Translations under genes and position numbers: made by a program
The notes under the pieces: model-generated
Told to the model about the DNA's origin: nothing
Database searches by the model: none
The model's input: the letters and a program-made list of their open reading frames with translations, nothing else
Assembly (NCBI GenBank): GCA_016212855.1
Contig: JACRDP010000009.1
Coordinates: 1-64,000 of the forward strand
DNA from: Elusimicrobiota bacterium
GTDB taxonomy: Bacteria; Elusimicrobiota; Elusimicrobia; UBA1565; UBA9628
DNA length: 64,000 nt
Direction of reading: 5' to 3'
Part shown: one piece after another, positions 170 to 61,803 of the stretch
Layout of the letters: the number at the start of each line of letters is the position of its first letter
How positions within the stretch are numbered: the stretch's first letter is position 1

Positions 170-385
170 TTAGGCGGCGCTGACCTGGGCGCGCTTCGAG
201 ATCCGCCCCCGGGTCCGCTCCGCCGACGTCCACACGCACTTCCCCCCTTCGCAACGCACCTTCGCGAAAGGCTTCCACGCCGCACCGCGCCCCATGAACA
301 GCCAGGGCATCAAGGCCTTCGCCAGCTCCGACCTTCCGTTCATAACCGCCTCCGTCCTCGCGTCCACAACGTCCTCTTGGTGCAT
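170..385 (-). CDS. small hypothetical protein
   Basis: This is a 71-residue ORF of unknown function. It is basic, has a hydrophobic patch (LMPWLFMG), and carries two cysteines spaced C-x4-C. A near-consensus sigma-70 promoter sits immediately upstream, with its -10 ending five bases before the ATG at 385, so the message would be leaderless. An internal ATG at 343-341 has GGAGG five bases upstream and would give a 57-residue protein, so two starts are plausible. The promoter is the main reason to treat this as a gene. No family is recognised. Confidence 0.4.
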   Translation of the reverse strand: MHQEDVVDARTEAVMNGRSELAKALMPWLFMGRGAAWKPFAKVRCEGGKCVWTSAERTRGRISKRAQVSAA

Positions 386-390
386 GCTTA

Positions 391-419
391 TTTATAACAG
401 CTAATCTAATATTTGTCAA
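391..419 (-). promoter_or_regulatory. near-consensus sigma-70 promoter
   Basis: On the minus strand TTGACA (419-414) is followed by a 17-base spacer and TATAAA (396-391). The predicted transcription start falls on or next to the ATG at 385. A palindrome AATAGCTATT at 418-427 abuts and partly overlaps the -35 and could be an operator. Confidence 0.7.
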
Positions 420-508
420 TAGCTATTTTATCATTGTAAATCAGTATAGCTAATAGATTATGTTAGGTTTAAAAACGGCGGGGGAGGGGAGAAACGTCGT
501 CGAGGAAT

Positions 509-2911
509 TTACGCGAACGCCAGCTCGGGAACGCTGAGCGAGGCCTGAGGATCGGCGGGCGGAGTCGCGGGCTTCTTGTCCGGGTGGTTCCCGTCCTTGA
601 ATATCCACTTCGGCACGTTGTACTGCAGGACCGCGGTGATCGTCAGGAACGCCGCGGTCGCGATCAGCGCGGGCGCCAGGCCCGCGAAGTCGAGCAGCAG
701 GCCGAGGAACAGCGCGCCGACGGATTCGAAGGCGACGTCGATCATGAACACGGCGCTCTCGATGCGCGCGAGCTTGTCGTCGTCCATCTCCGCGCGCTTG
801 ACGGGCTCCATCACGATGCCGACCGGCGCGTGGAAGTACTGCACGGTGAACAGCACGCCCGCGATGATCGCGAGGTTGAGCCAGAACATGCCGCCCGTCA
901 GGTACACGGGCGCGAGCAGGGCCCAGAACAGGAGCGAGGCGAAGGCGGCGTGGCGGTAGAAGCGGCCGTGGCCGACCTTCGCGATGATCGCGTCGCCCTT
1001 CTCCCCCTCCAGGCGGGCCGAGGGGATGAAGCGGCCGATGTACTCGAGCGAGAAGAGCAGGCCCATGATGCTGCCCGCGCTGGCGACCTGCGCGAGGAGC
1101 AGGCCGGGGAAGAAGGACACGGCGGCGACCGTCGCGGCGACGGCGCCGAGCACCAAGGCCGGCCACCAGGACTTGCGCTTGGTGACCGCGCGGATTCCCG
1201 CGGCGAGCAAGGCGAGGCCGGCCGGAATCGCGGCGGCCCACAGCGGCACGGAGAGAGCCGCCGGCGCCTTGCCGATCGCGTCGGTGATCAGGCTCGGGAT
1301 CAGGACGAAGGGCAACGCGTCGATGAGCAGGACCTCGAGCGCCATCACGGCGGTGAGGATGCGCAAGGTCCGGTTGCGCAGGATGAAGGCGACGCCTTCA
1401 AGCTGCTTGTAACCGTCGAGAATCTCGGGCAAAGAGCGGCGTTTAATACCGCTCTTGGCCCGGGCCGCCTTGATCGCGCCGGGAATCTTGAACAGCGCTT
1501 TAAGCAGGGCCGGAACCAGTAGCGCCGCCCCGGCGAGGGCGACGAGGAGCTCTTTGCCGACCCACAGGGCGCGGGCGCCGTGCGTCGCCGGGAACTCGGC
1601 TCGCGTCCGGGAGAAGAACGAGTTGAAGGACCAGTTGAGGAGAACCGTGAACGGATGCGCGACGCTCGCGAGCAAAGCGCCCATGAAGGTCACGATCTGC
1701 GCGCCGAAGCCGAGCGGGCCCATCTTGTCGTTGTCCGGGAAGCGCGAGTCGCGGATCATGAACCAGTAGAACGGAATCGAGGCGATGAGCAAAGCGCCGT
1801 ACACGCCGTACGCCATCGCGTAACCGCCGAGGCCCAGGCTCGTGACCATCGCGCCGACCGCCCAACCGGCGATGATCGGCATCAGCATGCCGGCGACGGA
1901 GTCCCACTTACCGAGCGTGGCCGCCGCGTCCTTATTGAGCTTCTCGTCTTTGCCGAGGAAGGACTTGCGCGCGGCGCCGTCGGCGACGATCATCACGCTC
2001 TGGAAGATCGGGTTGACCGCGACAATCAAGGCGAGAATCGTGAAGTGCAGTCCGCCCGCCATGAACAGCAGCGGGATCGCGGCCATCAGCGCCGCGCGGG
2101 CCAAGGAGGTCGCGATGAACACGACGCGGTAGTCGGTCTTGTCGATGAGGTAGCCGATGGGCAGAAGGTTCACGACGGCCATCGAGCCCATGTGGATGTT
2201 GCGCACCAGGCCCATCGTGGCCGTGCCCATGCCGAGGGTATCCTTCACGAGGAAGGCCTGGCTGAGGACGTGAAAGTTGACGCCGAAGACGGTGGTGATG
2301 TGATGGCCCCAGAACAGGCCCCACATCGAGCGCGGCAGCTTCGCGCGGCCGGGCGCGGGCGGCTGGGCGGGAGCGCCGCCGGCGGGAATTTTCGCCGGCT
2401 CGAGGCCGCTGGGCGTTTCGGACTCGGCGGACGGCGCGGCGAGAACGTCGTCGAGGGCGCTCGGACGCGCGAAGGCCTGGTCGAACAGCGCGCCGGCGTC
2501 CTCGCCGGTCTTGGCGTGTTTGAACGATCCCGCGGCGGCGGGCGCCGCCGCGACGGGTCGAACCGCGGCGCCGATCACGGCGGCGGGAACGGAGACGGCT
2601 TTCGCCGCGACGGCTGCGGGCGCGGAGCCGGGAACGGAGAGCGCGGCGAGAGGCGCGGCGACGGCCAGCGGCGCTGGCGCCGAGAGAACCGACAGGGCGG
2701 GACGAAGGGCCGCCGGCGCAAAACTTCCGGACAAAGACGGCGTCGGCAAGACCAACCGGACCGTTCCGATCGACCCGGCGGCGGCACCCGGGACGCCCGC
2801 GCGCGCGGCGGAGGCGGCGATCGTCTGGGCGCACACCTCATAGAACCGCCCTCCGGGGGTCAGGAGAGCGATGGAAACGATCAGGACCGTAGCGATCAGG
2901 CGCCGCATCAT
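509..2911 (-). CDS. MFS-type transporter with secreted-type Ala/Pro-rich N-terminus
   Basis: This 800-residue protein starts with a signal-peptide-like segment (basic MMRR, then a hydrophobic run, to about residue 28). About 165 residues of Ala/Pro/Val-rich low-complexity sequence follow. From about residue 195 there is a polytopic membrane domain resembling the major facilitator superfamily, with a loop motif GYLIDKTDYR after an early helix and an enlarged central region (about residues 420-510). Typical MFS proteins have 400-450 residues, so the N-terminal extension is unusual. The substrate is unknown. The first of two adjacent ATG codons lies seven bases after a -10 box, which implies a leaderless message. 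The gene is divergent from the one at 3026. Confidence 0.8.
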   Translation of the reverse strand: MMRRLIATVLIVSIALLTPGGRFYEVCAQTIAASAARAGVPGAAAGSIGTVRLVLPTPSLSGSFAPAALRPALSVLSAPAPLAVAAPLAALSVPGSAPAAVAAKAVSVPAAVIGAAVRPVAAAPAAAGSFKHAKTGEDAGALFDQAFARPSALDDVLAAPSAESETPSGLEPAKIPAGGAPAQPPAPGRAKLPRSMWGLFWGHHITTVFGVNFHVLSQAFLVKDTLGMGTATMGLVRNIHMGSMAVVNLLPIGYLIDKTDYRVVFIATSLARAALMAAIPLLFMAGGLHFTILALIVAVNPIFQSVMIVADGAARKSFLGKDEKLNKDAAATLGKWDSVAGMLMPIIAGWAVGAMVTSLGLGGYAMAYGVYGALLIASIPFYWFMIRDSRFPDNDKMGPLGFGAQIVTFMGALLASVAHPFTVLLNWSFNSFFSRTRAEFPATHGARALWVGKELLVALAGAALLVPALLKALFKIPGAIKAARAKSGIKRRSLPEILDGYKQLEGVAFILRNRTLRILTAVMALEVLLIDALPFVLIPSLITDAIGKAPAALSVPLWAAAIPAGLALLAAGIRAVTKRKSWWPALVLGAVAATVAAVSFFPGLLLAQVASAGSIMGLLFSLEYIGRFIPSARLEGEKGDAIIAKVGHGRFYRHAAFASLLFWALLAPVYLTGGMFWLNLAIIAGVLFTVQYFHAPVGIVMEPVKRAEMDDDKLARIESAVFMIDVAFESVGALFLGLLLDFAGLAPALIATAAFLTITAVLQYNVPKWIFKDGNHPDKKPATPPADPQASLSVPELAFA

Positions 2912-2918: not shown

Positions 2919-2924
2919 AGTGTA
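2919..2924 (-). promoter_or_regulatory. -10 box (TACACT), leaderless geometry
   Basis: TACACT on the minus strand ends seven bases before the ATG of the MFS gene. No convincing -35 is visible. The start codon would be the first codon of the mRNA. Confidence 0.45.
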
Positions 2925-3014: not shown

Positions 3015-3020
3015 TATACT
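3015..3020 (+). promoter_or_regulatory. -10 box (TATACT) before the GTG at 3026
   Basis: TATACT lies five bases before the GTG start. The -35 region is weak (CTGGAG at 2991, 18-base spacer). It is divergent from the promoter at 2919 within a 114-base intergenic region. Confidence 0.5.
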
Positions 3021-6040: not shown

Positions 6041-6046
6041 AGTATA
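6041..6046 (-). promoter_or_regulatory. -10 box (TATACT) before cdaA
   Basis: TATACT on the minus strand lies ten bases before the cdaA ATG, giving a leader of only about three bases. The -35 is weak. Confidence 0.4.
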
Positions 6047-6226: not shown

Positions 6227-6255
6227 TTGACGGCCGCGATGTGGTCCCCTATCCT
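6227..6255 (+). promoter_or_regulatory. sigma-70 promoter of the four-gene operon
   Basis: TTGACG (6227-6232), a 17-base spacer and TATCCT (6250-6255) lie nine bases before the ATG at 6265. The spacing supports 6265 rather than the in-frame ATG at 6205 as the true start. Confidence 0.6.
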
Positions 6256-9898: not shown

Positions 9899-9904
9899 AG
9901 TGTA
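9899..9904 (-). promoter_or_regulatory. -10 box (TACACT), leaderless geometry
   Basis: TACACT on the minus strand ends six bases before the ATG of the small membrane protein at 9892. Confidence 0.4.
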
Positions 9905-10124: not shown

Positions 10125-10153
10125 ACTGTAGACGAACTCACCGTCGGGCGCAA
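10125..10153 (-). promoter_or_regulatory. promoter of the pilin-like peptide
   Basis: On the minus strand TTGCGC (10153-10148), a 17-base spacer and TACAGT (10130-10125) end six bases before the GTG at 10118. Confidence 0.45.
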
Positions 10154-23413: not shown

Positions 23414-23443
23414 ATTTTAGCGATTTTGAGCCGCCAGGTCCAA
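23414..23443 (-). promoter_or_regulatory. promoter of the nuo operon
   Basis: On the minus strand TTGGAC (23443-23438), an 18-base spacer and TAAAAT (23419-23414) precede the nuoJ ATG by nine bases. The -35 directly abuts the stop codon of the preceding gene. Confidence 0.5.
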
Positions 23444-24205: not shown

Positions 24206-24211
24206 ATCTTA
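24206..24211 (-). promoter_or_regulatory. -10 box (TAAGAT), leaderless geometry
   Basis: TAAGAT on the minus strand ends six bases before the ATG at 24199. No clear -35 is seen. Confidence 0.4.
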
Positions 24212-26268: not shown

Positions 26269-26274
26269 AGGATA
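26269..26274 (-). promoter_or_regulatory. -10 box (TATCCT), leaderless geometry
   Basis: TATCCT on the minus strand ends seven bases before the ATG at 26261. It overlaps the stop region of the J-domain gene. Confidence 0.4.
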
Positions 26275-26830: not shown

Positions 26831-26859
26831 AGTTTAACGGGAAGGCCGCGGCTGATCAA
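26831..26859 (-). promoter_or_regulatory. sigma-70 promoter of the J-domain gene
   Basis: On the minus strand TTGATC (26859-26854), 17 bases and TAAACT (26836-26831) end seven bases before the GTG at 26823, so the message should be leaderless. Confidence 0.6.
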
Positions 26860-26870: not shown

Positions 26871-26899
26871 TTGACTCGGCGGCCCCGCCCCGCTACACT
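26871..26899 (+). promoter_or_regulatory. sigma-70 promoter of the response-regulator operon
   Basis: TTGACT (26871-26876), 17 bases and TACACT (26894-26899) end six bases before the GTG at 26906. It is back to back with the promoter of the J-domain gene. Confidence 0.65.
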
Positions 26900-28832: not shown

Positions 28833-28838
28833 AAAATA
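28833..28838 (-). promoter_or_regulatory. -10 box (TATTTT), leaderless geometry
   Basis: TATTTT on the minus strand ends six bases before the ATG at 28826. A weak -35 (TTCTTA) lies 17 bases further upstream. Confidence 0.35.
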
Positions 28839-28841
28839 GGA

Positions 28842-28847
28842 TATAAT
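28842..28847 (+). promoter_or_regulatory. consensus -10 box (TATAAT)
   Basis: TATAAT lies in the sequence AAATAGGATATAATCAC, which recurs exactly before tRNA-Ser at 30541-30557. The seventh base after it is followed by an in-frame ATA codon of the downstream membrane-protein ORF. Confidence 0.5.
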
Positions 28848-32662: not shown

Positions 32663-32688
32663 GGAAACAATAATCAAACGGGGAATGA

Positions 32689-33492: not shown

Positions 33493-33514
33493 GAGGAGGG
33501 TGCCGCCTCTCTAA

Positions 33515-33551: not shown

Positions 33552-33573
33552 AATCCTCTTCAATCCAGCAGGC

Positions 33574-34014: not shown

Positions 34015-34028
34015 GTACATGACCCCCT

Positions 34029-34076
34029 GTGCCGTTTATTTATGAATGACTGGGTAAATGTTCTTTATGCCGGCAC
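34029..34076 (-). promoter_or_regulatory. conserved pilin 5' leader (copy 2)
   Basis: The GTGCCG...CGGCAC arrangement of copy 1 is kept. In this copy the first ATG is followed by TAC and is in frame with the pilin. Confidence 0.4.
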
Positions 34077-34098
34077 TCTGGTCATGAGCACTGGACGG

Positions 34099-34127
34099 AG
34101 TATAACCGGAAGCCACGCCGCTGTCAA
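34099..34127 (-). promoter_or_regulatory. consensus sigma-70 promoter of pilin copy 2
   Basis: On the minus strand TTGACA (34127-34122), a 17-base spacer and TATACT (34104-34099). Transcription should start near 34092, giving a leader of about 75 bases. Confidence 0.8.
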
Positions 34128-34189
34128 GCGAACGGAAGATTAAATCGCTGTGACTTAAGTCCCGTTTTACGTCCTTTCATCCCGGCCGG

Positions 34190-34273: not shown

Positions 34274-34310
34274 ACCGCCCGGGACGAATTGCTTTAATAG
34301 TTTACGATAC

Positions 34311-38527: not shown

Positions 38528-38533
38528 ATTATG
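38528..38533 (-). promoter_or_regulatory. -10 box (CATAAT) before the outer-membrane protein gene
   Basis: CATAAT on the minus strand ends eight bases before the ATG. TCGACG lies 18 bases further upstream as a possible -35. The layout equals that of the dehydrogenase gene at 41775. Confidence 0.45.
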
Positions 38534-40376: not shown

Positions 40377-40382
40377 AGGATA
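40377..40382 (-). promoter_or_regulatory. -10 box (TATCCT), leaderless geometry
   Basis: TATCCT on the minus strand ends six bases before the ATG of the receiver-PilB gene. Confidence 0.4.
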
Positions 40383-41783: not shown

Positions 41784-41789
41784 ATTATG
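41784..41789 (-). promoter_or_regulatory. -10 box (CATAAT) of the dehydrogenase gene
   Basis: CATAAT on the minus strand ends eight bases before the ATG. TTGTGA lies 18 bases further upstream. It is divergent from the TATAAT at 41824. Confidence 0.45.
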
Positions 41790-41823: not shown

Positions 41824-41829
41824 TATAAT
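41824..41829 (+). promoter_or_regulatory. consensus -10 box (TATAAT), leaderless geometry
   Basis: TATAAT ends exactly seven bases before the GTG at 41837. The last two bases form part of an in-frame ATG (41828), which is therefore unlikely to be the translation start. Confidence 0.55.
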
Positions 41830-43854: not shown

Positions 43855-43860
43855 TATAAT
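43855..43860 (+). promoter_or_regulatory. consensus -10 box (TATAAT)
   Basis: TATAAT ends eight bases before the ATG of a 32-codon ORF at 43869. No -35 is evident. Confidence 0.5.
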
Positions 43861-43868
43861 AGACACCG

Positions 43869-43967
43869 ATGCGAATTCTGCGCGTGAACGTAGCGGCGTG
43901 GCGCCTGCGTCGACTGATTCCAAATCCTTCGCCGGCAACCATCAACGCAATCAAGACGGACGCCTGA
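43869..43967 (+). CDS. putative leader peptide upstream of the CapK-like gene
   Basis: This 32-codon ORF encodes a basic peptide (MRILRVNVAAWRLRRLIPNP at its start). It begins eight bases after a TATAAT and its TGA ends one base before the next ATG. Its placement suggests a leaderless upstream ORF whose translation delivers ribosomes to the downstream gene. Too short for family assignment. Confidence 0.4.
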   Translation: MRILRVNVAAWRLRRLIPNPSPATINAIKTDA

Positions 43968-43968
43968 C

Positions 43969-45378: not shown

Positions 45379-46511
45379 TCCTGGGCATAGACGCCTCGAA
45401 CATCCGCGCAGGCGGCGGCGTGACGCATCTCACCGAATTGCTCGCGGTAGCCGAGCCCCGGGCACATGGATTCGAAAAGGTGATCGTCTGGAGCGGCGCT
45501 AAGACGCTCGCGAAAATCGCGGATCGGGATTGGCTCTGCAAGATTCACGATCCCCAACTGGACCGAGGTTTGTTTCTTCGAACGCTCTGGCAGCGTTTCA
45601 GATTGAAGCGGCTCGCCGAACAGGCCGGATGCGAAGTGTTGTTTGTCCCCGGGGGATCGGATTCCTGCGGCTTCAAGCCTCAAGTCACCATGAGTCGGAA
45701 TATGCTCCCGTTCGAATGGGCGGAACTGCGCAGGTATGGCTGGTCTTTAAATGTGTTGAGGTTGCTGCTGCTACGGTTGACCCAAAGCCGGACTTTCCGC
45801 AAGGCCGACGGCATCATTTTTTTGACCCAATACGCCCGCGATGTGGTCCTGAGAACGACGGGGCCGCTCCCCGGGCGAATTGCCACCATCCCACACGGCG
45901 TCGGCCCACGCTTCGCCCTCGCCCCGCGTCCGCAACGCGTGCGAAAGCAATTCGACGAATCGGCTCCATGCCGCATACTCTACGTATCCAAGGTCTCGGC
46001 CTATAAGCATCAATGGCACGTCGCGGAAGCGGTCGCGCGCCTGCGCGAATCCGGATTGCATGTGGCGCTCGATCTCGTCGGGCCGCCCGGCAGCGGAACT
46101 CCACGGCTCGATGCCGCGCAAAAGCGATTGGATCCTTCAGGAGTCTTCATTCGCTATCACGGCGCAGTCCCTTACAAGGAGCTGCATCGATATTATGCGA
46201 ACGCCGAGATCGGAATTTTCGCGTCCAGCTGCGAGGCTTTCGGTCAAATCTTGACGGAATCCATGAGCGCCGGATTACCGCTTGCCTGTTCAAATCGATC
46301 GGCGATGCCGGAGATCTTGGGGGAGGCGGGCGTGTACTTCGATCCAGAAAACCCCGCTGAAATCGCTGATTCCATCCGCCGTTTAGTCGAGTCGGCGGAG
46401 CTCCGCCAGCAAAAAGCCGCTTTGGCCTACGAGCGCGCTCGCCAATTATCCTGGACACGCTGCGCCGAAGAAACTTTAGGATTCATCTCGCGTGTGGCGA
46501 GAGAACGGTAA
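45375..46511 (+). CDS. GT4 family glycosyltransferase
   Basis: ATG overlaps the CapK stop. The longer frame upstream is a shadow. The 378-residue GT-B protein starts MILGIDASNIRAGGGVTHL. It has IPHGVGPRF, LYVSKVSAYKHQ and the donor-binding C-terminal motif ASSCEAFGQILTESMSAGLP (E-x7-E). It probably adds one sugar of the repeat unit at the cytosolic face. It ends three bases from the convergent WbuB-like gene. Confidence 0.87.
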   Translation: MILGIDASNIRAGGGVTHLTELLAVAEPRAHGFEKVIVWSGAKTLAKIADRDWLCKIHDPQLDRGLFLRTLWQRFRLKRLAEQAGCEVLFVPGGSDSCGFKPQVTMSRNMLPFEWAELRRYGWSLNVLRLLLLRLTQSRTFRKADGIIFLTQYARDVVLRTTGPLPGRIATIPHGVGPRFALAPRPQRVRKQFDESAPCRILYVSKVSAYKHQWHVAEAVARLRESGLHVALDLVGPPGSGTPRLDAAQKRLDPSGVFIRYHGAVPYKELHRYYANAEIGIFASSCEAFGQILTESMSAGLPLACSNRSAMPEILGEAGVYFDPENPAEIADSIRRLVESAELRQQKAALAYERARQLSWTRCAEETLGFISRVARER

Positions 46512-46513
46512 AG

Positions 46514-47749
46514 TTAAGTTCGCTTGAGGATGGCATCCTGCAGGACTCCAAGCATGTCGGCAGCCAGGCTCCTGCGATCGAACTTCACCGCGGCGCAAAC
46601 GCATTGCGCTTTGAGTTCCTGATAACGCGCGCTGTCGGAAGACAGTTTATCGATCAAAGAGACGAGGTCTGCGGCGTTCTCGGGCTCGAAGGCCACGCCG
46701 GCCTTCTCACGTAAAACGATCTCCCGGGACTCCCCCTCCACGCCCATAAGAACGGGCACGCCCATCGCCATGCTCTCGAAGATCTTGGATGGGATGACCG
46801 TTTTAAAAAGAGGGGTCTTGCGCAAATGGACGACGCTGACGTCCAACAGCGACCAATAAGCGACGACTTCGTCCTTGGCGACTGAGTCCAAGAAAAGGAC
46901 CGTGTCCAGACCGCGGGCGCGCGCCCGCGCCTTCAACGCCTCCTTGCGCGCACCATCGCCCACCATCAGAAAGCGGAATCGATCTCCGTGCGGGCGCCGG
47001 CGGATCAACTCCGCGGCCTCGAGGATCGTCTCCAGTGCATGCGCCATGCCATGGGTGCCGATATAGCCCACGACAAATTTTCCTTCCAATCCGAAGCGAG
47101 CGAGCAGTTCCGGATCCTTCGGCGTCGGAGCAAATCGCGACAAGTCGACACCGCTGGTCACGACGGCGATCTTACCGCCCTCGACGCCTCTTTTAATCAG
47201 CGTTTCCTTAAACGAGTGCGTCACCGAAACGATCGCGGCCGCTCGATGGTAGAGAAAAAGTTCAAGCCGCTCCAAAAGCCTGAGCGCGGGGCCGTCCTTC
47301 ATGGCGCCCACAGCCTTGATCGATTCGGGCCAGATATCTCGCAGTTCGAAGACGAACGGCGCGCACTTGGCGCGGCTCACGAAGTAAGCCGCGCAAGCAG
47401 TGAAGAACTGCGGCGACGTCCCCACCACCACATCACAGCGACCCGCTAATGGCGACGCCAAAATGGCGCTGAACATGTAGCTTAAATAATCGAGGGTTCT
47501 TTTCAGGAAGCCCTCATTGGCCGTGATGTAGGTCCACACGCGAATGACGGAAATGCCCTCCATTTGTTCCCGATGCCGCAGTTGGTTGCGGTAGCCGGGA
47601 TAAACCCTGCCCTGAGGGAAATTGGGGAATCCCGTGATCACCGTAACCCGGTGGCCGGCCCGCACCCACTCCCGGCAGTGCTCGAAAGTGCGGCTGGCCG
47701 GAGCATTAACCTCAGGCGGGAAGTTGTCCGTCAGAAAGAGAATGTGCAC
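46514..47749 (-). CDS. GT4 glycosyltransferase, WbuB/WcaI-like
   Basis: The 411-residue protein starts at GTG with GAGG four bases upstream. FLTDNFPPEVNAPASRTFEH, ITGFPNFPQGRVYPGYRN, FELRDIWPESI and VIPSKIFESMAMGVPVLMG are close to the WbuB group, whose E. coli member transfers N-acetyl-L-fucosamine. A deoxy-aminosugar donor is therefore possible but not established. It follows the C5-epimerase gene by six bases. Confidence 0.86.
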   Translation of the reverse strand: MHILFLTDNFPPEVNAPASRTFEHCREWVRAGHRVTVITGFPNFPQGRVYPGYRNQLRHREQMEGISVIRVWTYITANEGFLKRTLDYLSYMFSAILASPLAGRCDVVVGTSPQFFTACAAYFVSRAKCAPFVFELRDIWPESIKAVGAMKDGPALRLLERLELFLYHRAAAIVSVTHSFKETLIKRGVEGGKIAVVTSGVDLSRFAPTPKDPELLARFGLEGKFVVGYIGTHGMAHALETILEAAELIRRRPHGDRFRFLMVGDGARKEALKARARARGLDTVLFLDSVAKDEVVAYWSLLDVSVVHLRKTPLFKTVIPSKIFESMAMGVPVLMGVEGESREIVLREKAGVAFEPENAADLVSLIDKLSSDSARYQELKAQCVCAAVKFDRRSLAADMLGVLQDAILKRT

Positions 47750-47755
47750 AGAGCC

Positions 47756-48713
47756 TCAGTAGTAGAACACCTTAAACAGACATTTCTGAGCCAGGCTCAG
47801 CGCCCGATTTCCTTTTTTATCGCCGTAATCGGCCCATTGAGCGGCGTACCGGCCGAAGGCCGCACTGCCCGTCATTTTTTCGGTGACGCGCAATTGTATG
47901 AGGTGTAGGCCGTGATAATAATGGCTTGCGATCATCGGGATGAACGTCGGCGAAAGCTCATATAAGGACCAGAAGCCGTTGTCGTATTTGCTCAGGTTTC
48001 GCTCGATAGTCCCAACGCAGGCGTCGAACAGGCGCCGCGCCGACTTGTCCTCGGTGATGAAAATATAATCGCGCAGGCCCCACAGCGCCCAGAAGAACCC
48101 GTTCAAGATATGCGATGGCGGCGAGACGATGTATTCCTCGATCCAGACGTCGCCCGAGGGCTCCGTGAACAGCACGCCGCCCTGCGAGACCTCGCGCTCG
48201 AAGACGGCGTAAGCCTTGCGCATGGCATCCAGGTAGCGCTCTTCACCGGTGAGTTGATAGGCGCGAGCCAGTGCCGAGAGCCCCTGGCCTTGAGCCAAAC
48301 CCGAATACCACGGAGCGATCAGACGCTCGCGATACTCAAAATCGAAGTGATGATTCCAAACGTAAAGTCCCTTGGGGTTGAGCTCAAGCGAGCGCGCGAG
48401 CCAATCCGCTTGAGCAAGAAAACATCGCCGATTCTCCACGCCGCCTCGCTCCTCGAATAAATTATAATGCGCGAGCCCGTACTGCGCGATCGCGATCGGA
48501 TTGTGCTGAATCCCGATCGATCCGTGATAATTGAGCTGTGGCACGCCGTTCGCATCGAAGGGGCCCGGGTAGGCCGCTTTACCCGCGAAGGTCATGTAGT
48601 AGGGGCCCAACCGATCGTAGACGGCGCGCGGGTTGAGCGCGGGAGTCTCGTGCCAGAAGGTCAGGTTGCTGTTGCCCCCCAATAAATAGGCCCGGGAGAT
48701 GCGTCGCCAGTAA

Positions 48714-48730
<17 letters not shown>
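47756..48730 (-). CDS. D-glucuronyl C5-epimerase domain protein
   Basis: The start at 48730 lies 17 bases inside the end of wecB. The 324-residue protein has the C5-epimerase C-terminal-domain pattern: LNYHGSIGIQHNPIAIAQYG, WYSGLAQGQGLSALARAY, IVSPPSHILNGFFWALWGL, GFWSLYEL and YYHGLHLIQL. The domain inverts C5 of glucuronic acid in polymers (D-GlcA to L-IdoA). No signal peptide is seen, so it may act on lipid-linked or cytosolic glycan. In this locus the substrate may be an N-acetylated uronate. Confidence 0.85.
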
Positions 48731-49781
<1,051 letters not shown>

Positions 49782-49786
49782 GGTGA

Positions 49787-51115
49787 TTATCGGACCGCGG
49801 TCTTTTCAGACCACTCCACGTGCTGCCGCCAGGATTGCGCGTTTCCGATGAAAAACATTTTTCCCCCACCCGGCTCCAACATAAGGCTTGCGAGTTCCAC
49901 GGCGGTTTGCGGCGCGCGGGTCTCCAGATCATAGAAACGGTCGTCAGGGCCGCTCGCGCCGAGATCGAGCTGGATCGGTCGAGACTCCTTAAGATCGGTG
50001 CTGACCACCATTAAATAGCGGGATCCGCTGTCGCGGTCAATGAACGTCCGGCCGTGGATATCCGGATGGTCGGCGCGTGAGACCTGTCCGCTCTCGGGCG
50101 CGAGATCGAGACGAAGCAGGAGGGGCTTGATCGGATCCAGCCGACGGCTCAGCGCGGAGGCTTCCTCGTAATGGTCCAACGGACGGCCATGACGATCGCG
50201 GAAGTGCTCGCTGAGCGCTCCCTTTTTCAGTTCTGTCGATCCCTGATACCCAAAAAAGAAAACCCCTTTCGCTCCGTGGAGCAGCGCCATCCACACTTGA
50301 TAGCGCAGCTGCGCCGGCGACGGTTTGGCCATGAGCCACTGCGTCGTCTCCCCCTTCTCATCGATCCTGCGCTTGCTCCAGGATTGGACCATCATCCACA
50401 ACGGGACGCCGCTCTGGCGAGCGATGGTGGAGAGCTTTGACAACGTACCCTCATAGTAAATGCGCTGCTTGGGCCACGTAGTAGGCCCGCTGCTCCCGGC
50501 AAAAAAAGGATAGATATCGAAGGCGAGAATTCGGGAGTTGATCTCACTCGCCGCGCGCTGCGCGGACTTAATCGGATTATGAAGGACGATCACGGGATGA
50601 TCGGGATCGAGCTTCTGCACTTCCTGGGTGATTTCGACGATCGCTGGAAAAAAAGGGCTACTCGGAGGAATCTCCTCAACGAGGCAATAGGCCAGCAACG
50701 TCGGATCGCCCCGGTATTTTTTGGCGAGTTCACGATAGAACGGCTTGACTCGCGACTCGATGGCAGGCTTCCAGCTATTTTCCCACCGGCCCTTGTCGAG
50801 AAGATACATCGGCATGTCGCCGCCCTGCGTGATGATCCGCTGCCCATGTTTGGAAGCGGCAGCCAGCCAGGCATCGAGATACTTGGGGCTCAAATTATGG
50901 ACCCAGAGCGCATTGAAGTGGTGCGCTTGTAAATCCGCGCAAGTTGCTTCAATCTGCTCCTCCACCGATGCGCCGCTCTCCTGCATGGAGGCGATCGGCG
51001 CGTTGCCTTCGACGTAGACGCCGAAGGGGAAAAACCTTTCTGGAGGAACGACATGTGCCGCCTCAACGCTCGTCCACGCGCAGAGAAGGCAAGCCCCTAT
51101 GAAAAGCTTTCCCAT
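49787..51115 (-). CDS. secreted TIM-barrel glycosidase-like protein
   Basis: Start at MGKLFIGACLLCAWTSVEA, a signal peptide; the longer frame upstream overlaps the oxidoreductase gene. The 442-residue protein reads FFPFGVYVEG, HHFNALWVHNL, LAYCLVEEIPPSSP and GAKGVFFFGYQG, resembling the (beta/alpha)8 barrel of GH42/GH-A-type enzymes, with Glu in VEE as a possible acid. A C-terminal beta domain follows. It could trim the exported polysaccharide in the periplasm. The family is not confidently identified. Confidence 0.65.
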   Translation of the reverse strand: MGKLFIGACLLCAWTSVEAAHVVPPERFFPFGVYVEGNAPIASMQESGASVEEQIEATCADLQAHHFNALWVHNLSPKYLDAWLAAASKHGQRIITQGGDMPMYLLDKGRWENSWKPAIESRVKPFYRELAKKYRGDPTLLAYCLVEEIPPSSPFFPAIVEITQEVQKLDPDHPVIVLHNPIKSAQRAASEINSRILAFDIYPFFAGSSGPTTWPKQRIYYEGTLSKLSTIARQSGVPLWMMVQSWSKRRIDEKGETTQWLMAKPSPAQLRYQVWMALLHGAKGVFFFGYQGSTELKKGALSEHFRDRHGRPLDHYEEASALSRRLDPIKPLLLRLDLAPESGQVSRADHPDIHGRTFIDRDSGSRYLMVVSTDLKESRPIQLDLGASGPDDRFYDLETRAPQTAVELASLMLEPGGGKMFFIGNAQSWRQHVEWSEKTAVR

Positions 51116-51119
51116 CGGA

Positions 51120-53246
51120 TTACAGGCTGACGGGCTTTCCGCTGTGCAGACTTTCATGAGCGGCCAGCGCCGCGTGAGACGAGGCGAGGACGTCGTCCAA
51201 AGAGACCGGAGCAGGCCGTCCCTGTCGCACCGCAGCGGCAAACGCGGACCACTGGGCCTGGTGTCCCTTGTCCGCCCGCATCCATGCGCGGCGCGAGGCT
51301 TTTCGGCCGTGCGACCATATCGTCAACCGCCGGAAATCCTCAAGAACAGCGCTCACGCCGCCCGAATGAACCTCATAGCGCTCCTTGCCCGCCGCGCTGT
51401 CGCCCGTACTGACATAAAGGATATCGGCGACGCTGCCGTCGGAGTAGCTCAGACGGAGCGACCAGTCTTGATCGCCAGCCAGCGAACCGATCCCTCGTGC
51501 GTCGGCCGCCGAAGGCTTTGAACCAACGACGAAGTTGGCCCAATCGATAAAATGACAACCCTCACCCAGCAGGCGTCCACCCTCGGACGGTTCCAAAACC
51601 CAATGCCCGGCTGGGAGCGCCCCAGCGTTTATCCGGATCTGGATCGCCTTTGCTCCGTCAGGCAGCGCCTTCTTCAATGCGATGGAGAAGGGAGCAAATC
51701 GCCGATTAAATCCAACGGCAAGAATACCTTTCGCCGAACGGGCCGCCGCTTCAACACGCCTAAATTCGTCAAGGGTGAGACATAGCGGTTTTTCTACGAA
51801 TACGCTCTTTCCGACGGCCAAGGCCGCGCAGGCCTGGGCCGCGTGCTCGCAATGGCGCGTCAGCACAGCAACGATGGATGTATCAGCGTCCGCAATGACC
51901 TCCTCCGCGCGCGACGAAGCGAAGGCAAAACCAAAGCGGTCCGCAGCAGCCTTCGCCTTGGTGCCCGACGCGCTGGCAATCCCGCGCAGGGAAGCGCCGG
52001 AAGCGTGCACGATGGGCAACAGCACGCTGCTTGCAAATTGGCCGGCGCCGATTACGCCTACGCCGCCGACAGCGGAGCGACGTGGAGCTGGACTCCAAAC
52101 TTGCGTCGCCGCAGCCGAGGGAAACTCGCCATAGGTCAAGACGACGCCCAAGGAAGGTTCGTCCCCGCTGCTGGCGATGAGCCGGTAGGCCTCGACCGCC
52201 GATCCAAATGGGAGGCGATGGGTGATGAGCGGGGCCACGCGAACAGATCCCGTCGACAGCAATCGCAGGAATTCCTCGATGTTCCTCTTTTCGGTCCAGC
52301 GCACATAAGCATAAGGATAGTCGATGCCGCCCTCTTCGTAGCTCGGGTCGTAGCGCCCAGGGCCATAGGAGCGGGAGACATGAAGCGCCAATTCCTTTCG
52401 ATAAAAAACGGTCCTCGGCACGGCAAGATTCACATTGCCGATGGCTACGACCACGCCGCGATCACGGGCGAGCGCACCGGAAAGCTCGATGGGATCGCTT
52501 GAGGCCGCGTCGGCGCAGATAAGCACGACGTCGAAGCCGCGGCCATCGGTAAAAGACATCGCCGCTGCTTCGGCGCCGGCGCGCGTGACCGCTGCATCAA
52601 ATCCTCCCGCCTTGGCGACCTCAAGACGGCGCGCGTCGAGATCGATGCCCAATACGCGGCAGCCGGCAGCCTTGGCGATCAACCCGGCCAGTTGTCCGAG
52701 AACGCCCAAGCCGATCACGACCACTGACTCGCCCAGCCTCGCTTCGGAGAGACGAAATCCCTGCAGTGCAATTGCACCCAAGGTCGAGAACGCCGCGTCC
52801 TCGAAGTTTGTCAAAAGCTGAGGAAACTTTACGCAAAGATTCTGAGGAACGGCGGCGAACTCCGCATGATTGGCGTAACCCGCGCCCGCGCAAGCGACAA
52901 AATCTCCGGGAGAAAAACCATCCACCCCTTCGCCAACCGCTTCGACCACGCCCGCGGCGGAATAGCCGAGCGGCAAAGGCTGATCGAGCCGACCTTGCGT
53001 AGCGTCCCAGACCGACAAGATCCCGTCGCGGCGCGCCTTCTGCACGGCCTGGCGCACGAGGTCCGGACGCTTGCGCGCCTTTCCGAGCAGAGTGCTCTTG
53101 GCGAAATCGACAAGCATCCTCTCCGTTCCCGCCGATACGGCCGAGGCGCGCAGACGCACGAGCACTTGCCCATCCCTCGCCTGCGGGACCGGCACCTCAG
53201 CGAGGTAGGTCTCACCCGACTTAAGATTCTGCAACAGCTGCTTCAA
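51120..53246 (-). CDS. two-domain oxidoreductase (zinc-type dehydrogenase + Gfo/Idh/MocA)
   Basis: TTG start with GGAGG six bases upstream. The 708-residue protein has an N-terminal MDR alcohol-dehydrogenase-like half (about 1-370; VVIGLGVLGQLAGLIAKAAG) and a C-terminal Gfo/Idh/MocA half (from about 390; GVIGAGQFASSVLLP, VFVEKPLCLTLDEF). Such fusions occur in capsule and heparinase-containing loci and are thought to modify sugars bound to a nucleotide or polymer. The substrate is unknown. Confidence 0.85.
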   Translation of the reverse strand: MKQLLQNLKSGETYLAEVPVPQARDGQVLVRLRASAVSAGTERMLVDFAKSTLLGKARKRPDLVRQAVQKARRDGILSVWDATQGRLDQPLPLGYSAAGVVEAVGEGVDGFSPGDFVACAGAGYANHAEFAAVPQNLCVKFPQLLTNFEDAAFSTLGAIALQGFRLSEARLGESVVVIGLGVLGQLAGLIAKAAGCRVLGIDLDARRLEVAKAGGFDAAVTRAGAEAAAMSFTDGRGFDVVLICADAASSDPIELSGALARDRGVVVAIGNVNLAVPRTVFYRKELALHVSRSYGPGRYDPSYEEGGIDYPYAYVRWTEKRNIEEFLRLLSTGSVRVAPLITHRLPFGSAVEAYRLIASSGDEPSLGVVLTYGEFPSAAATQVWSPAPRRSAVGGVGVIGAGQFASSVLLPIVHASGASLRGIASASGTKAKAAADRFGFAFASSRAEEVIADADTSIVAVLTRHCEHAAQACAALAVGKSVFVEKPLCLTLDEFRRVEAAARSAKGILAVGFNRRFAPFSIALKKALPDGAKAIQIRINAGALPAGHWVLEPSEGGRLLGEGCHFIDWANFVVGSKPSAADARGIGSLAGDQDWSLRLSYSDGSVADILYVSTGDSAAGKERYEVHSGGVSAVLEDFRRLTIWSHGRKASRRAWMRADKGHQAQWSAFAAAVRQGRPAPVSLDDVLASSHAALAAHESLHSGKPVSL

Positions 53247-53304
53247 CTCACTCCTCCGGCCGCTCTAGAGTCCAGATCGACCATATGCTACAAAATCGAT
53301 CCCG

Positions 53305-54657
53305 TCACTCCGCGACGGGCAATCCCAAAAGTCGTCGAATCCGATTGGAAGCGAAATCGAAGCGCATACCGAATATCTTATTATTGGGTACCAGCACCTG
53401 CCATCGCGGCGTCGCCAACTCCCGCCAGCTCAGACCTACGGCCTGCCGAAAGAACGCCACCTGCGCGAGCGCGACCACAAAGTAAGCGCACAGGGAGGCG
53501 ATGGCCGCCCCCAAGATTCCCAGGGGAGGCAAGAGCAGGGCGAGCAGCGCTACGGTCACCACTAGTCCCAAGCCTTCAGACAACGCCGGCTTTCCGGGTT
53601 CACCAAGGCCTCGCAGGCTGTTTCCCAAGACGCTGTTGACTCCTTGAAAAAGAGCCGCGACCAGGAGAATCCGCGCTGGGAAAATGGCCCCGGAATAATC
53701 CTTGCTGAACAAAAATGGCAGGACCCAGGGCATCAATAAAATGGCCAGGACCGTTGTCGGCACCCCCAACAAAGCCGCCAAATAAATATGACGCAACGCC
53801 TGCCCTCCGCCGGCTTCGATATTTTCCGCCTTGGCGATCCGAGGGAACACCACCATGGCTAAGGCGTTGTAGAGAGGAGCCAGCATGCCGGAAAGCGAAA
53901 CGGCTACCGCATAAAGTCCGAGTTGATCGGAAGCCATCACCGAGGTCATGATGAGTTGATCCATGCGCAGATTAACCTGCGACGCGATCGAAGAAAGAAA
54001 CGACTTAAGCCCATAAGCGAATACCGGTCTCACCAGAGTCCGCGGCCATGCAAACACCGGACGCAGCCTCCAGATCACCGCGCTGGAGGTAATCATGCAA
54101 GCGGAAGTCTGGGTACAAAGATAAGCGATCAAATAGTTGCGCACCGTCGGCCAGCCCATGGCCGCTACGCAGGCGACCCCGATGGTATAACTGACTCCGC
54201 CGTAGATGCGCAGGAGGTTGAATTCGACAAGGGCATTGGAGCCCAGGAGAAGATGGGCTTGTTGATTGGTGGCGATCATGAATGGGATCGCCACCGCCAT
54301 CCATCTCAAATAAGAGCTCACGACGGGAGACAGATGAAGAGCCTCAGGCAGGATCAGCGCTCCGAAAAGAGCCAGCAGGCCTCCCCACAGGATGCTGACC
54401 AGCCAGGACAGCAGCCACAGGCCACCTATACGTTTGGGTTCCTTGCCCGCAAAGTAAGCGAAGGAAAAACCAAGACCCAGGTTCCCGATCAACGTCAGCG
54501 CATTAAGCCAAACAATGACGGCCGCCATTTCGCCGCGGCGCTCGGGCCCCAACGTACGCGCAAGCATGATCCCGGCGCAGGCGCCCGCGACACCCACGAT
54601 GATCGTCGACGCGAGAGTGCCGGGTAGACCGCGGGTCATACGGCCTTGAATTTTCAT
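53305..54657 (-). CDS. wzx: Wzx-like polysaccharide flippase
   Basis: The 450-residue membrane protein has about twelve to fourteen helices and the MATE/MOP-flippase pattern, including ARTLGPERRGEMAAVIVWLN at the first loop and a later FSKDYSGAIFPARILLVAA. It should flip the undecaprenyl-linked repeat unit to the periplasm. It overlaps the Wzy-like gene by four bases. Confidence 0.85.
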   Translation of the reverse strand: MKIQGRMTRGLPGTLASTIIVGVAGACAGIMLARTLGPERRGEMAAVIVWLNALTLIGNLGLGFSFAYFAGKEPKRIGGLWLLSWLVSILWGGLLALFGALILPEALHLSPVVSSYLRWMAVAIPFMIATNQQAHLLLGSNALVEFNLLRIYGGVSYTIGVACVAAMGWPTVRNYLIAYLCTQTSACMITSSAVIWRLRPVFAWPRTLVRPVFAYGLKSFLSSIASQVNLRMDQLIMTSVMASDQLGLYAVAVSLSGMLAPLYNALAMVVFPRIAKAENIEAGGGQALRHIYLAALLGVPTTVLAILLMPWVLPFLFSKDYSGAIFPARILLVAALFQGVNSVLGNSLRGLGEPGKPALSEGLGLVVTVALLALLLPPLGILGAAIASLCAYFVVALAQVAFFRQAVGLSWRELATPRWQVLVPNNKIFGMRFDFASNRIRRLLGLPVAE

Positions 54658-55979
54658 CGTTTAGCCACGGCGCCGGGCGCACCCGAGGCTTGCTTGCCGG
54701 AGCGCACACCGATGCCGGTTCCCAACGCCGTCAGCACCAACCAAACGATCGGACTGAACCGATTGAGCGTCAACACCGGCGCTCCCATTCCGGCCCCGAG
54801 GAGAAGCAGAACGACGACCAGCAGAAGTTGGCCCTCTTCGCAGCCCCCGAACTTGCTTCTAATCGCACGAAACAGGGCATACCCGAACATGGCTAAATAA
54901 AGGACTAGCGCCACGCAGCCTCCCGAGGCGAATATTTCCAAATAGGCGTTATCGACGATCGCGTAGGACCCGATCCCCGTTCCCAGCCACGGAGATCGGG
55001 ACCAGACTTCTCCGAAATCATCGATGATTCCCCCACGAGTGCCGCCGGTCGTGAAGCGACCCGCGGTGTAGCGCGACAGGACATCGGAGGAGTCAAGGTA
55101 TGACGACAGCTTCGTCAGCCTCGCTCCGGTAGCCGTATCGATAAGCACATATTGCGCCGAAAGGAAAATAACGGGGGCAAGCAGAAACAAGATCAGCGCG
55201 GACCTCCTCATGGCTTTGCCTGAAGAGAGCATATAGATGCCCGCCAGGATCGGCGCTCCGATCAAGAACACCTTAGAGACCGATAGGAGCCCCCCGATGA
55301 CGACCAAACCGACTGCGGCGAGTTGCATAACACTGGGCCATCTTCTCGCTTTAGCCAGCGTGTAGCACCACAACATAAGAACCAGCGAATACATATCGCC
55401 GGCTTCGATCGGCTGGTTGAATATGCCCGTAAATCTCCCCAGCGCTCCCGCCGCACTGGCGACTGAGGAGCGCTCCAATTTCCCTGAGTCCTGCCAGAAG
55501 TGCGAAAGCATCGGCTTGAGAGCTCCTCCGGGGAGAGCGAGCTGAACGATCGCGACCGCTGAATTAAGCGCTGCCAGAAAGAGCGCGACCTTGCATATTT
55601 CCATTATCATCGCAGAGGAGCCGCCGCTCTTTAAGCGGCGTTTCATGCAAGCGGACATGACAAACATCAGCACCAGCGGTTCAAGGAACTTCTCACCGCG
55701 GGAGACAATGTGCCGAATGTTCGGATCGTATTGCGGATAATAATTCGCGTAAGTTGAGATCGCCGACCACAAAACGATCAGCATCCAAAATACGCAGATA
55801 TGCAGAATAAAGGTCGATGCTTGCTTTTTCTTCTCCAGGAAATAGACAGGTAACGTCATCAAAAAAAACCCGTAGATCAGGACATGAGCAGCTTGAAGGC
55901 CGGAACCTGTACCCAGATACGGCCCGAAACAGCCGACCACGATGAGTATCGCGGAATTTCGGATCAGCCAGTCATACAT
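54654..55979 (-). CDS. O-antigen polymerase/ligase family protein (Wzy-like)
   Basis: The 441-residue protein has ten or more helices. The large periplasmic loop near residues 290-340 contains GGTRGGIIDDFGEVWSRSPW, GTGIGSYAIVDNAYLE, resembling the Wzy_C signature. It likely polymerises repeat units. The ATG lies after GGAG with rather long spacing. A second ligase-like protein is encoded at 57594. Confidence 0.8.
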   Translation of the reverse strand: MYDWLIRNSAILIVVGCFGPYLGTGSGLQAAHVLIYGFFLMTLPVYFLEKKKQASTFILHICVFWMLIVLWSAISTYANYYPQYDPNIRHIVSRGEKFLEPLVLMFVMSACMKRRLKSGGSSAMIMEICKVALFLAALNSAVAIVQLALPGGALKPMLSHFWQDSGKLERSSVASAAGALGRFTGIFNQPIEAGDMYSLVLMLWCYTLAKARRWPSVMQLAAVGLVVIGGLLSVSKVFLIGAPILAGIYMLSSGKAMRRSALILFLLAPVIFLSAQYVLIDTATGARLTKLSSYLDSSDVLSRYTAGRFTTGGTRGGIIDDFGEVWSRSPWLGTGIGSYAIVDNAYLEIFASGGCVALVLYLAMFGYALFRAIRSKFGGCEEGQLLLVVVLLLLGAGMGAPVLTLNRFSPIVWLVLTALGTGIGVRSGKQASGAPGAVAKR

Positions 55980-56032
55980 GAATCAACACTCCACAATGTT
56001 TCCCAAGTAGATGCTCGAGTCATTCTGTGCCG

Positions 56033-61057: not shown

Positions 61058-61060
61058 GGC

Positions 61061-61789
61061 TTAGAAGAAGCTCTGCGGCACGTAGATCACGTCGTTGGGT
61101 TCAAGCACCAGGTCCTTTTCTTTCTGTCCCTGTTGCGTGATGGCCTTGACCTCGATGGTGTAGGTGACGCTCACGCCGTTGACGGTGCGCAGGACGCGGG
61201 TGCGATCCTGCGCCGCGATCGGCGTGAAGCCGCCCGCGGTGCTGATCGCCTCGAGAACGGTCAGACGCGACTCCGTCGGAATGGCGAGCGAGCCCGGCCG
61301 CTGCACCTCGCCCATCACGAAGACGGTCTTATTTCCGTACTCCTCGATGAACAGCGAAACTTGCGGGCTGACAAGGAACTTAGCCAGCTTGCCTTCGATA
61401 GAACCCTGCGCTTCGATGAGAGTCATCCCCCCCACCTTGACCTCGCCGATCAGGGGCATGGAGATGGAGCCGTTGGCGTTGACGCGCACCTTGCGGTTCA
61501 TCTCGAGGTCCTGGTAGACCGTGACGCTGATCAGGTCGGCCGCGGAAATCTTGTAGTCCGTCTTAGAACGCGACACCTGCTGCATGGCCGCCGCGATGGC
61601 CGCAGCCTCCTTCGCCGCGGCCGCCTGCTGAAGTTCGGGAGCAAGCGACGAGGCTGAGTCAGCCGGGGTCGCCTGAGCGGGGGCGGGAACGGCGGCGGGA
61701 ACGTCCGGCGCGCCCTCCGTTATCTGCAGCTTGCCGCACGCCGACAGCAATATGCACAGCACGGCGGTGAAGTACGGGGGGCGTTTCAT
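61061..61789 (-). CDS. wza: polysaccharide export lipoprotein (Wza/SLBB family)
   Basis: The 242-residue protein has a lipobox (CILLSAC), then the Poly_export domain (YKISAADLISVTVYQDLEMN, GSISMPLIGEVKVGG) and an SLBB-type segment (VFVMGEVQRPGSLAIP, LEAISTAGGFTP). It forms the outer-membrane export channel. TATAAT ends eight bases before the ATG, so an internal promoter may let export genes be expressed separately from the upstream barrel gene. Confidence 0.9.
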   Translation of the reverse strand: MKRPPYFTAVLCILLSACGKLQITEGAPDVPAAVPAPAQATPADSASSLAPELQQAAAAKEAAAIAAAMQQVSRSKTDYKISAADLISVTVYQDLEMNRKVRVNANGSISMPLIGEVKVGGMTLIEAQGSIEGKLAKFLVSPQVSLFIEEYGNKTVFVMGEVQRPGSLAIPTESRLTVLEAISTAGGFTPIAAQDRTRVLRTVNGVSVTYTIEVKAITQQGQKEKDLVLEPNDVIYVPQSFF

Positions 61790-61797
61790 CCGCGCTT

Positions 61798-61803
61798 ATT
61801 ATA
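61798..61803 (-). promoter_or_regulatory. internal -10 box (TATAAT) before wza
   Basis: TATAAT on the minus strand ends eight bases before the wza ATG and overlaps the region just after the barrel-gene stop. Confidence 0.5.

What the first reader, a model, noticed from the sequence alone, without database searches (positions are those of the whole stretch)
383..61803. Systematic leaderless promoter geometry at most transcription-unit starts
Seen directly: -10-like hexamers end 5-10 bases before the start codons at 385, 2911, 3026, 6030, 6265, 9892, 10118, 23404, 24199, 26261, 26823, 26906, 28826, 38519, 40370, 41775, 41837, 43869 and 61789. Several have TTGACx/TTGATC boxes at exactly 17 bases (385, 6265, 26823, 26906). 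With initiation about seven bases after the -10, the first transcribed codon would be the start codon. Inside operons starts are supplied by ATGA/GTGA overlaps. The pilins and the head of the exopolysaccharide operon instead have leaders of about 45-75 bases with Shine-Dalgarno sites. This suggests two translation-initiation classes in this lineage, with secreted, abundant products in the leadered class.
Basis: partly seen in the sequence, partly recalled or inferred. Interest (0 to 1): 0.75.

Follow-up and report, generated by a model that had tools for sequence, protein, structure and literature searches.

The report
Leaderless genes in an Elusimicrobiota lineage
In this uncultured Elusimicrobiota lineage many genes appear to start transcription on or right beside the start codon, so their messages would carry no ribosome-binding leader; this way of starting genes is known from other bacterial groups, and the evidence here is from sequence only.

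Summary
The window is from a 66% G+C Elusimicrobiota MAG. With genes called without upstream signals, TANNNT starts at -12 in 69 of 453 starts from three genomes of the family, against 3.4 per position further upstream, dropping to 5 and 2 at -11 and -10. E. coli shows no -12 peak; Deinococcus deserti does. Aligning on TANNNT alone reveals a -35 TTG at 17 bp and an extended -10 G. In 52 orthologous starts the box keeps its place in 45 (controls 0-3). SD motifs avoid these genes (4 of 103 against 67 of 257). So these are sigma70-type promoters expected to fire on, or within a few bases of, the start codon; RNA ends were not available. 'Most' is too strong: 136 of 453 starts carry the box, about 20 expected; 10 of 25 first genes in the window. 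The idea that secreted products are leadered is not borne out. The trait is strong in this order, weak or absent in other Elusimicrobiota sampled. Known mechanism; no earlier report for this phylum in the searches made.

The parts
391..396 (-). -10 TATAAA, 5 nt before ATG at 385; -35 TTGACA at 414-419, spacing 17; 71-codon ORF, no Pfam match
   Evidence: not searched in relatives
2919..2924 (-). -10 TACACT, 7 nt before ATG at 2911
   Evidence: kept in 2 of 2 orthologues
3015..3020 (+). -10 TATACT, 5 nt before GTG at 3026
   Evidence: no orthologue in fetched stretches
6041..6046 (-). -10 TATACT, 10 nt before ATG of cdaA (DisA-type diadenylate cyclase) at 6030
   Evidence: kept in 9 of 10 orthologues, wider set
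6250..6255 (+). -10 TATCCT, 9 nt before ATG at 6265; -35 TTGACG at 6227-6232, spacing 17
   Evidence: alternative ATG 60 nt upstream; no orthologue in fetched stretches
9899..9904 (-). -10 TACACT, 6 nt before ATG at 9892
   Evidence: 3 of 3 orthologues
10125..10130 (-). -10 TACAGT, 6 nt before GTG at 10118
   Evidence: 5 of 6 orthologues
23414..23419 (-). -10 TAAAAT, 9 nt before ATG of a NuoJ-type gene (Oxidored_q3) at 23404
   Evidence: 9 of 9 orthologues
24206..24211 (-). -10 TAAGAT, 6 nt before ATG at 24199
   Evidence: 5 of 5 orthologues
26269..26274 (-). -10 TATCCT, 7 nt before ATG at 26261
   Evidence: 8 of 8 orthologues
26831..26836 (-). -10 TAAACT, 7 nt before GTG of a DnaJ-domain gene at 26823; -35 TTGATC at 26854-26859
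   Evidence: alternative ATG 48 nt upstream; no orthologue in fetched stretches
26894..26899 (+). -10 TACACT, 6 nt before GTG of a response regulator at 26906; -35 TTGACT at 26871-26876
   Evidence: 5 of 5 orthologues
28838..28843 (-). best -10 (TATCCT), 11 nt before ATG at 28826; doubtful site
   Evidence: rival ATG at 28856; no orthologue in fetched stretches
38528..38533 (-). -10 CATAAT, 8 nt before ATG at 38519
   Evidence: 1 of 1 orthologue, relaxed box
40377..40382 (-). -10 TATCCT, 6 nt before ATG of a T2SSE ATPase with receiver domain at 40370
   Evidence: 1 of 1 orthologue, relaxed box
41784..41789 (-). -10 CATAAT, 8 nt before ATG of a UDP-sugar dehydrogenase at 41775
   Evidence: 1 of 1 orthologue, relaxed box
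41824..41829 (+). -10 TATAAT, 7 nt before GTG of a low-molecular-weight phosphatase at 41837
   Evidence: 0 of 1 orthologue; alternative ATG 9 nt upstream
43855..43860 (+). -10 TATAAT, 8 nt before ATG of a 32-codon ORF at 43869 that ends one base before the ATG at 43969
   Evidence: not searched in relatives
61798..61803 (-). -10 TATAAT, 8 nt before ATG of a polysaccharide export protein at 61789
   Evidence: no orthologue in fetched stretches
34298..34303 (+). additional candidate: TAGTTT, 7 nt before ATG of smpB at 34311 (weak box)
34099..34127 (-). leadered contrast: TTGACA (34122-34127), 17 bp, TATACT (34099-34104), about 72 nt upstream of the prepilin start at 34020
   Evidence: counted by eye; N_methyl

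Best explanation
At a large share of transcription-unit starts in this Elusimicrobiota genus and its order, the sigma70-type promoter is placed so that its -10 hexamer ends most often 6 (5-10) bases before the start codon. RNA polymerase would then initiate on the A or G of ATG/GTG or up to about four bases before it, giving leaderless or near-leaderless mRNA. Such mRNA is presumably translated through direct start-codon recognition by 70S or initiator-tRNA-loaded ribosomes, as described for other bacteria. Genes inside operons start through stop/start overlaps and Shine-Dalgarno sites, and a minority of first genes, such as the pilins, have SD-bearing leaders. Shown here: motif, position, -35 and extended -10 context, concentration at genes with an upstream gap, avoidance of SD, and conservation. 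Inferred: actual 5' ends and translation of the leaderless form.
For: Position: in 453 starts of three same-family genomes TANNNT counts are 69 at -12, 28 at -13 and 22 at -15, against 3.4 per position at -60..-25, falling to 5 and 2 at -11 and -10, the wall expected if the transcription start cannot lie past the start codon. Independent promoter signature: 136 starts chosen by TANNNT alone show TTG exactly 17 bp upstream in 19 (0-5 in the 15 other registers), G in 65% at -2 of the hexamer, and A in 61% and 51% at hexamer positions 4 and 5. Footprinting: 45 of 52 orthologous starts keep TANNNT at -16..-11, controls 0-3; 49 of 52 with a relaxed box. At cdaA the box is missing in several relatives whose upstream sequence looks coding (by eye). 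Context: SD in 4 of 103 -10-adjacent first genes against 67 of 257 others; first genes 50 of 153 against internal 10 of 198 in the own genome. Controls: E. coli 7 of 67 against 7.8 expected; D. deserti 11 of 66 against 2.4.
Against: No RNA 5' end is available for this lineage. Only about a quarter of starts with an upstream gap are explained above background (136 of 453, about 20 expected). Spacers of 8-10 nt imply leaders of a few bases rather than strictly leaderless messages. Internal genes show a small excess too (10 of 198 against 2.0; 8 of 146 against 0.6), which may be internal promoters or miscalled starts. Longer transcripts from further upstream promoters cannot be excluded. Three of 52 orthologous starts lack even the relaxed box. 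The orthologues come from related genomes and are not independent. The own MAG holds no 16S.
Confidence: 0.93

Rival explanations
1. The A/T-rich box just upstream of the start codon is a translation signal (for example a ribosomal protein S1 site or a non-SD ribosome-binding signal) on a longer leader, not a promoter.
For: Such AT-rich biases upstream of non-SD genes are discussed as possible S1 sites in PMC5397173 (passages).
Against: A TTG element at exactly 17 bp and an extended -10 G appear although not selected for; the signal is concentrated at genes with an upstream gap, 50 of 153 against 10 of 198 internal, whereas a translation signal should serve internal genes as well.
Confidence: 0.04
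2. The starts are misassigned: the boxes are ordinary promoters of leadered genes whose true start codons lie 20 or more bases downstream.
For: Start calling at 66% G+C is error-prone; several window genes have alternative starts.
Against: The box-to-start distance is kept at 5-10 nt in 49 of 52 orthologous starts; the response regulator at 26906 has its receiver domain starting at residue 4, leaving no room for a later start; SD is nearly absent at these starts.
Confidence: 0.03
3. The pattern is a by-product of the reader picking hexamers that fit, in AT-richer intergenic DNA.
For: Some listed sites are weak (28826, 43869), and -35 boxes are poor at 15 of 19.
Against: Unselected genome-wide peak with position controls, absent in E. 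coli by the same code, and conserved in relatives.
Confidence: 0.01

Closest known systems
-10 motif adjacent to ORFs in Deinococcus-Thermus (PMC12340547; outline and sections 7 and 12 read)
   Same: TANNNT about 6-7 bp upstream of the ORF, shown there to act as a sigma70-type -10, in nearly one-third of D. radiodurans genes; an SD class coexists. D. deserti plasmid 2 gives the same peak with my code.
   Different: Different phylum; here a 17-bp -35 TTG and an extended -10 G are visible in the pooled alignment; evidence here is computational only.
TA-led leaderless genes of Zheng et al. 2011 (PMC3160421; passages read)
   Same: Same TANNNT signal at about -12 of the translation start; the paper argues that only the proximal gene of a transcript can be leaderless and distal genes need SD.
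   Different: Elusimicrobi- does not occur in its main text; an 'Other Bacteria' row (8 of 20 genomes) could hold members. It links leaderless use to few operon-distal genes; here 198 of 423 called genes are close codirectional followers (another definition than theirs).
Leaderless transcriptomes of mycobacteria and Streptomyces (PMC3898074, PMC4895711 and others; search listing only)
   Same: High-G+C bacteria listed with both TANNNT and leaderless.
   Different: RNA 5' ends were mapped there (titles and abstracts); none here.

Membership tests
Bacterial leaderless (TA-led) genes | TANNNT about 12 bp upstream of the start, far above background | tested here: met
   69 of 453 at -12 against 3.4 per position
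Bacterial leaderless (TA-led) genes | The box belongs to a promoter (-35 and/or extended -10) | tested here: met
   TTG at 17 bp in 19 of 136, other registers 0-5; G 65% at -2
Bacterial leaderless (TA-led) genes | At single or first genes, not operon-internal ones | tested here: met
   50 of 153 first against 10 of 198 internal in the own genome; a small internal excess over 2.0 remains
Bacterial leaderless (TA-led) genes | No SD at these genes | tested here: met
   4 of 103 against 67 of 257
Bacterial leaderless (TA-led) genes | mRNA 5' end at or within a few bases of the start codon | not testable with these tools
   no RNA data for this lineage
Bacterial leaderless (TA-led) genes | Leaderless mRNA is translated | not testable with these tools
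   inferred from other taxa
SD-based initiation (coexisting) | 16S 3' tail with CCTCC | tested here: met
   GGATCACCTCCTTT in same-genus G011; the own MAG has no 16S
Leaderless group of GeneMarkS-2 | Assignment by that program | not tested
   program not available; its paper is not held

The most novel reading that the evidence does not exclude
Within one phylum, one high-G+C order has made leaderless initiation a main mode of starting transcription units (possibly half of them once start errors and degenerate boxes are allowed for), while other families and classes kept ordinary leaders. This would have happened in operon-rich genomes, against the proposal that leaderless genomes are those with few operon-distal genes, and would make Elusimicrobiota a natural experiment on how leaderless initiation is gained or lost.
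Probability: 0.4. Interest if true: 0.55.

Novelty: new member of a known kind. Interest (0 to 1): 0.42.

Why it matters
It adds an order of uncultured bacteria to those that seem to rely on leaderless mRNA. That affects annotation of their gene starts (gene finders that look for SD sites can misplace them) and the reading of metatranscriptomes. The contrast inside one phylum allows comparative tests of what favours leaderless initiation: G+C content, operon structure or ribosome features.

Tried and rejected
A first gene caller did poorly on the 68.5% G+C genome G011 and was replaced by one seeded on amino-acid composition and trained against shadow frames; the conclusions rest on the second, though one search already showed the peak in the own genome. 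TATAATN{5,8}ATG against its reversed form looked a poor control in AT-rich genomes, so spacing 18-21 was added. The excess at -15 was tested for starts called one codon late: 0 of 22 have a start-like codon just upstream, 2 of 22 also have a box at -12; it stays unexplained. The search with the 41775 protein returned many weak paralogues; its loci were not used. CdaA against plasmids gave nothing useful. The secreted/leadered hypothesis was tested and not borne out. A perfect leaderless rule for all listed starts was rejected: 28826 and 43869 are weak, and three of 52 orthologous starts are misses even with the relaxed box (10118 in G016, 41837 in G011, 6030 in G018).

Rows dropped before counts: tblastn hits starting after query residue 25 or under 35% identity, and hits without an in-frame start nearby, were left out; 17 sites were searched (385 and 43869 were not), 12 gave orthologues and 5 none (3026, 6265, 26823, 28826, 61789). 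In one search the fetched pieces L114, L118, L119, L122, L124, L203-L205, L208, L210-L212, L214 and L215 (short, or a single stretch of a genome) were not used; G037 was profiled only.
Full report
What was checked. In 18 of 19 the best -10-like hexamer ends 5-10 bases before the start codon; at 28826 it ends 11 bases before and the site is doubtful. TTGACA, TTGACG, TTGATC and TTGACT lie exactly 17 bases upstream of the -10 at 385, 6265, 26823 and 26906; the other 15 sites have poor -35 boxes (1-4 of 6 matches). At 43869 the ORF is only 32 codons long.

Where the window comes from. It is contig C4 of a 2.50 Mb, 73% complete genome, G+C about 66% in the 464 kb examined. Its CdaA protein has 17 related loci among named genomes, 10 of them 84-92% identical and 7 at 52-79%; 15 record titles say Elusimicrobia or Elusimicrobiota, including GWA2_66_18 and the complete chromosome CP096137, and two say only 'bacterium'. 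The own MAG has no 16S. The 16S of G011 ends in GGATCACCTCCTTT, so the SD partner is intact in the genus.

Genome-wide test. Genes were called by a script that uses codon and amino-acid statistics and start-codon preference, never upstream signals. In 464 kb of the own genome (window plus 400 kb), 50 of 153 first genes (divergent gap over 30 or codirectional gap over 60) have TANNNT starting at -16..-11, against 6-12 (mean 8.6) in five control windows of equal width; operon-internal genes show 10 of 198 against 2.0. G011 gives 40 of 171 against 5.4, and G019 (same family, another genus) 13 of 36 against 2.0. Pooled over these three and over all genes with an upstream gap (453; codirectional gaps over 15 now included), counts by position are 4, 22, 12, 28, 69, 5, 2 for -16 to -10, against 3.4 per position at -60..-25. 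The abrupt drop after -12 is what is expected if polymerase starts about seven bases past the -10 and cannot start inside the coding sequence. 136 of the 453 starts carry the box at -16..-11, about 20 expected from the background rate. The excess at -15 is unexplained; it is not due to a start codon called one codon late (0 of 22).

Controls with the same code. E. coli K-12, 150 kb: 7 of 67 first genes against 7.8; by position 0 at -12 and 5 at -13, against a mean of 1.7. Deinococcus deserti plasmid 2, 150 kb: 11 of 66 against 2.4 and 7 at -12 against a mean of 0.5. The pipeline finds the signal in a known leaderless organism and not in the known SD organism.

Are the boxes promoters? Aligning the 136 starts on TANNNT alone brings out TTG in the exact 17-bp register in 19 of 136, against 0-5 in the 15 other registers, a G in 65% at position -2 of the hexamer (extended -10), and A in 61% and 51% at hexamer positions 4 and 5. 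None of these was used for selection. Spacers from box to start codon are 6 in 69, 7 in 28, 9 in 18, 8 in 12, 5 in 5 and 10 in 4; start codons are 107 ATG, 27 GTG and 2 TTG. ATG and GTG both begin with a purine, the usual initiating base (general knowledge).

Conservation. In stretches from ten same-genus genomes, 52 orthologous starts of 12 window sites were found (5 of the 17 sites searched gave none): 45 keep TANNNT at -16..-11, seven control windows give 0-3, and 49 keep a relaxed box; TTG lies 16-18 bp upstream of the box in 19 of those 49, where the chance in these sequences is about 4% per three registers. The NuoJ-type gene keeps it in 9 of 9, the 26261 gene in 8 of 8, the response regulator at 26906 in 5 of 5, cdaA in 9 of 10, and the 41837 gene in 0 of 1. 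The genomes are related, so these are not independent trials. In a wider set, several relatives lack the box before cdaA, and there the sequence upstream looks like the end of another gene (by eye).

Two classes of initiation. SD-like tetramers (GGAG, GAGG, AGGA) occur at -15..-7 in 4 of 103 -10-adjacent first genes but in 67 of 257 other first genes of the three family genomes (summed). Among internal genes of the own genome 69 of 198 have SD (control 18), and 106 of 211 close codirectional pairs overlap by 4 or 1 bases. The two prepilin-like first genes found in the three family samples, both in the window, fall in the SD class under a wider rule that also counts AGGG and GGGG; n is only 2. 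Secreted-like products are not confined to leadered genes: 36 of 111 -10-adjacent, 21 of 80 SD, 12 of 169 neither (the signal-peptide rule is mine, and 'neither' probably includes miscalled starts). The polysaccharide export protein at 61789 is a direct counter-example.

Distribution in the phylum. TATAATN{5,8}ATG against TATAATN{18,21}ATG was counted in 294 Elusimicrobiota genomes drawn by the tool (summed from hand-copied tables). Pooled ratios: 5.8 in 14 genomes of the genus, 2.3 in 21 other genomes of the family (20 of 21 above 1), 3.5 and 3.0 in the two other families of the order (7 and 2 genomes), 1.5 in 145 genomes of the same class outside the order (142 of 145 above 1), 1.1 in 105 genomes of other classes (88 of 105 above 1). 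Direct profiles on smaller samples: family f2 of the same order, five genomes, 23 of 107 against 7.6; f7 20 of 77 against 13.4 (weak); f8, three genomes, 4 of 45 against 5.0; f15 6 of 43 against 10.0; f21 3 of 18 against 2.4; f6 5 of 41 against 6.6. Family numbers are tool labels, not names. High G+C and lineage go together in this sampling and are not separated.

What is known. Zheng et al. 2011 (PMC3160421, passages) describe the same TANNNT signal at -12 and report leaderless genes in many groups, most in Actinobacteria and Deinococcus-Thermus; the word Elusimicrob- does not occur in its main text, though an 'Other Bacteria' row exists. Zhong et al. 2025 (PMC12340547, outline and sections 7 and 12) show experimentally in Deinococcus that the box works as a sigma70 -10. 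The StartLink paper (PMC9581028, passages) quotes 21.6% of bacterial species as predicted to use leaderless transcription. In the held library two papers contain both 'leaderless' and 'Elusimicrobi'. In PMC10783764 (passages and section 16) the phylum stands in a table of SD usage, 46% for class Elusimicrobia and 43% for Endomicrobia; the other (PMC7448276) was seen only in the listing. Three papers contain Elusimicrobi, promoter and Shine-Dalgarno (listing only); their titles concern other subjects. The list (20 of 35 papers shown) was read by title and abstract start only, and the GeneMarkS-2 survey could not be read, so an earlier prediction for this phylum may exist there.

Conclusion. The finding is real and well supported by sequence. 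The mechanism is a known one, in a lineage for which I found no earlier report in the searches named. The open step is RNA 5'-end mapping.

Noticed in passing
window 43855-43975: TATAAT sits 8 bases before a 32-codon ORF (43869) whose stop is followed after one base by the ATG of the next ORF (TGACATG, 43969): possibly a leaderless short upstream ORF coupled to the following gene.
   Followed up: partly
window 32109-34150: Two prepilin genes (N_methyl) share near-identical upstream sequence including the SD-like G-run, and flank a prepilin peptidase gene (A24 family, 32689-33492).
   Followed up: partly
fetched stretches of G000, G011, G019 (window included): TANNNT is over-represented at -15 (22 of 453) relative to -14 (12) and -16 (4); not explained by start codons called one codon late.
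   Followed up: partly
fetched stretches of G000, G011, G019 (window included): -10-adjacent starts are frequent in codirectional gaps of 16-60 bases (18 of 44, 12 of 42, 3 of 7; E. coli 1 of 17), where part of the promoter would lie in the preceding gene.
   Followed up: partly
window 44000-56000: Region of lower G+C (0.59-0.60 per 4 kb) with a glycosyltransferase, patchy gene calls and no -10-adjacent first gene; may be laterally acquired.
   Followed up: no
window 38547-40370: Type II/IV secretion ATPase carrying an N-terminal response-regulator receiver domain.
   Followed up: no
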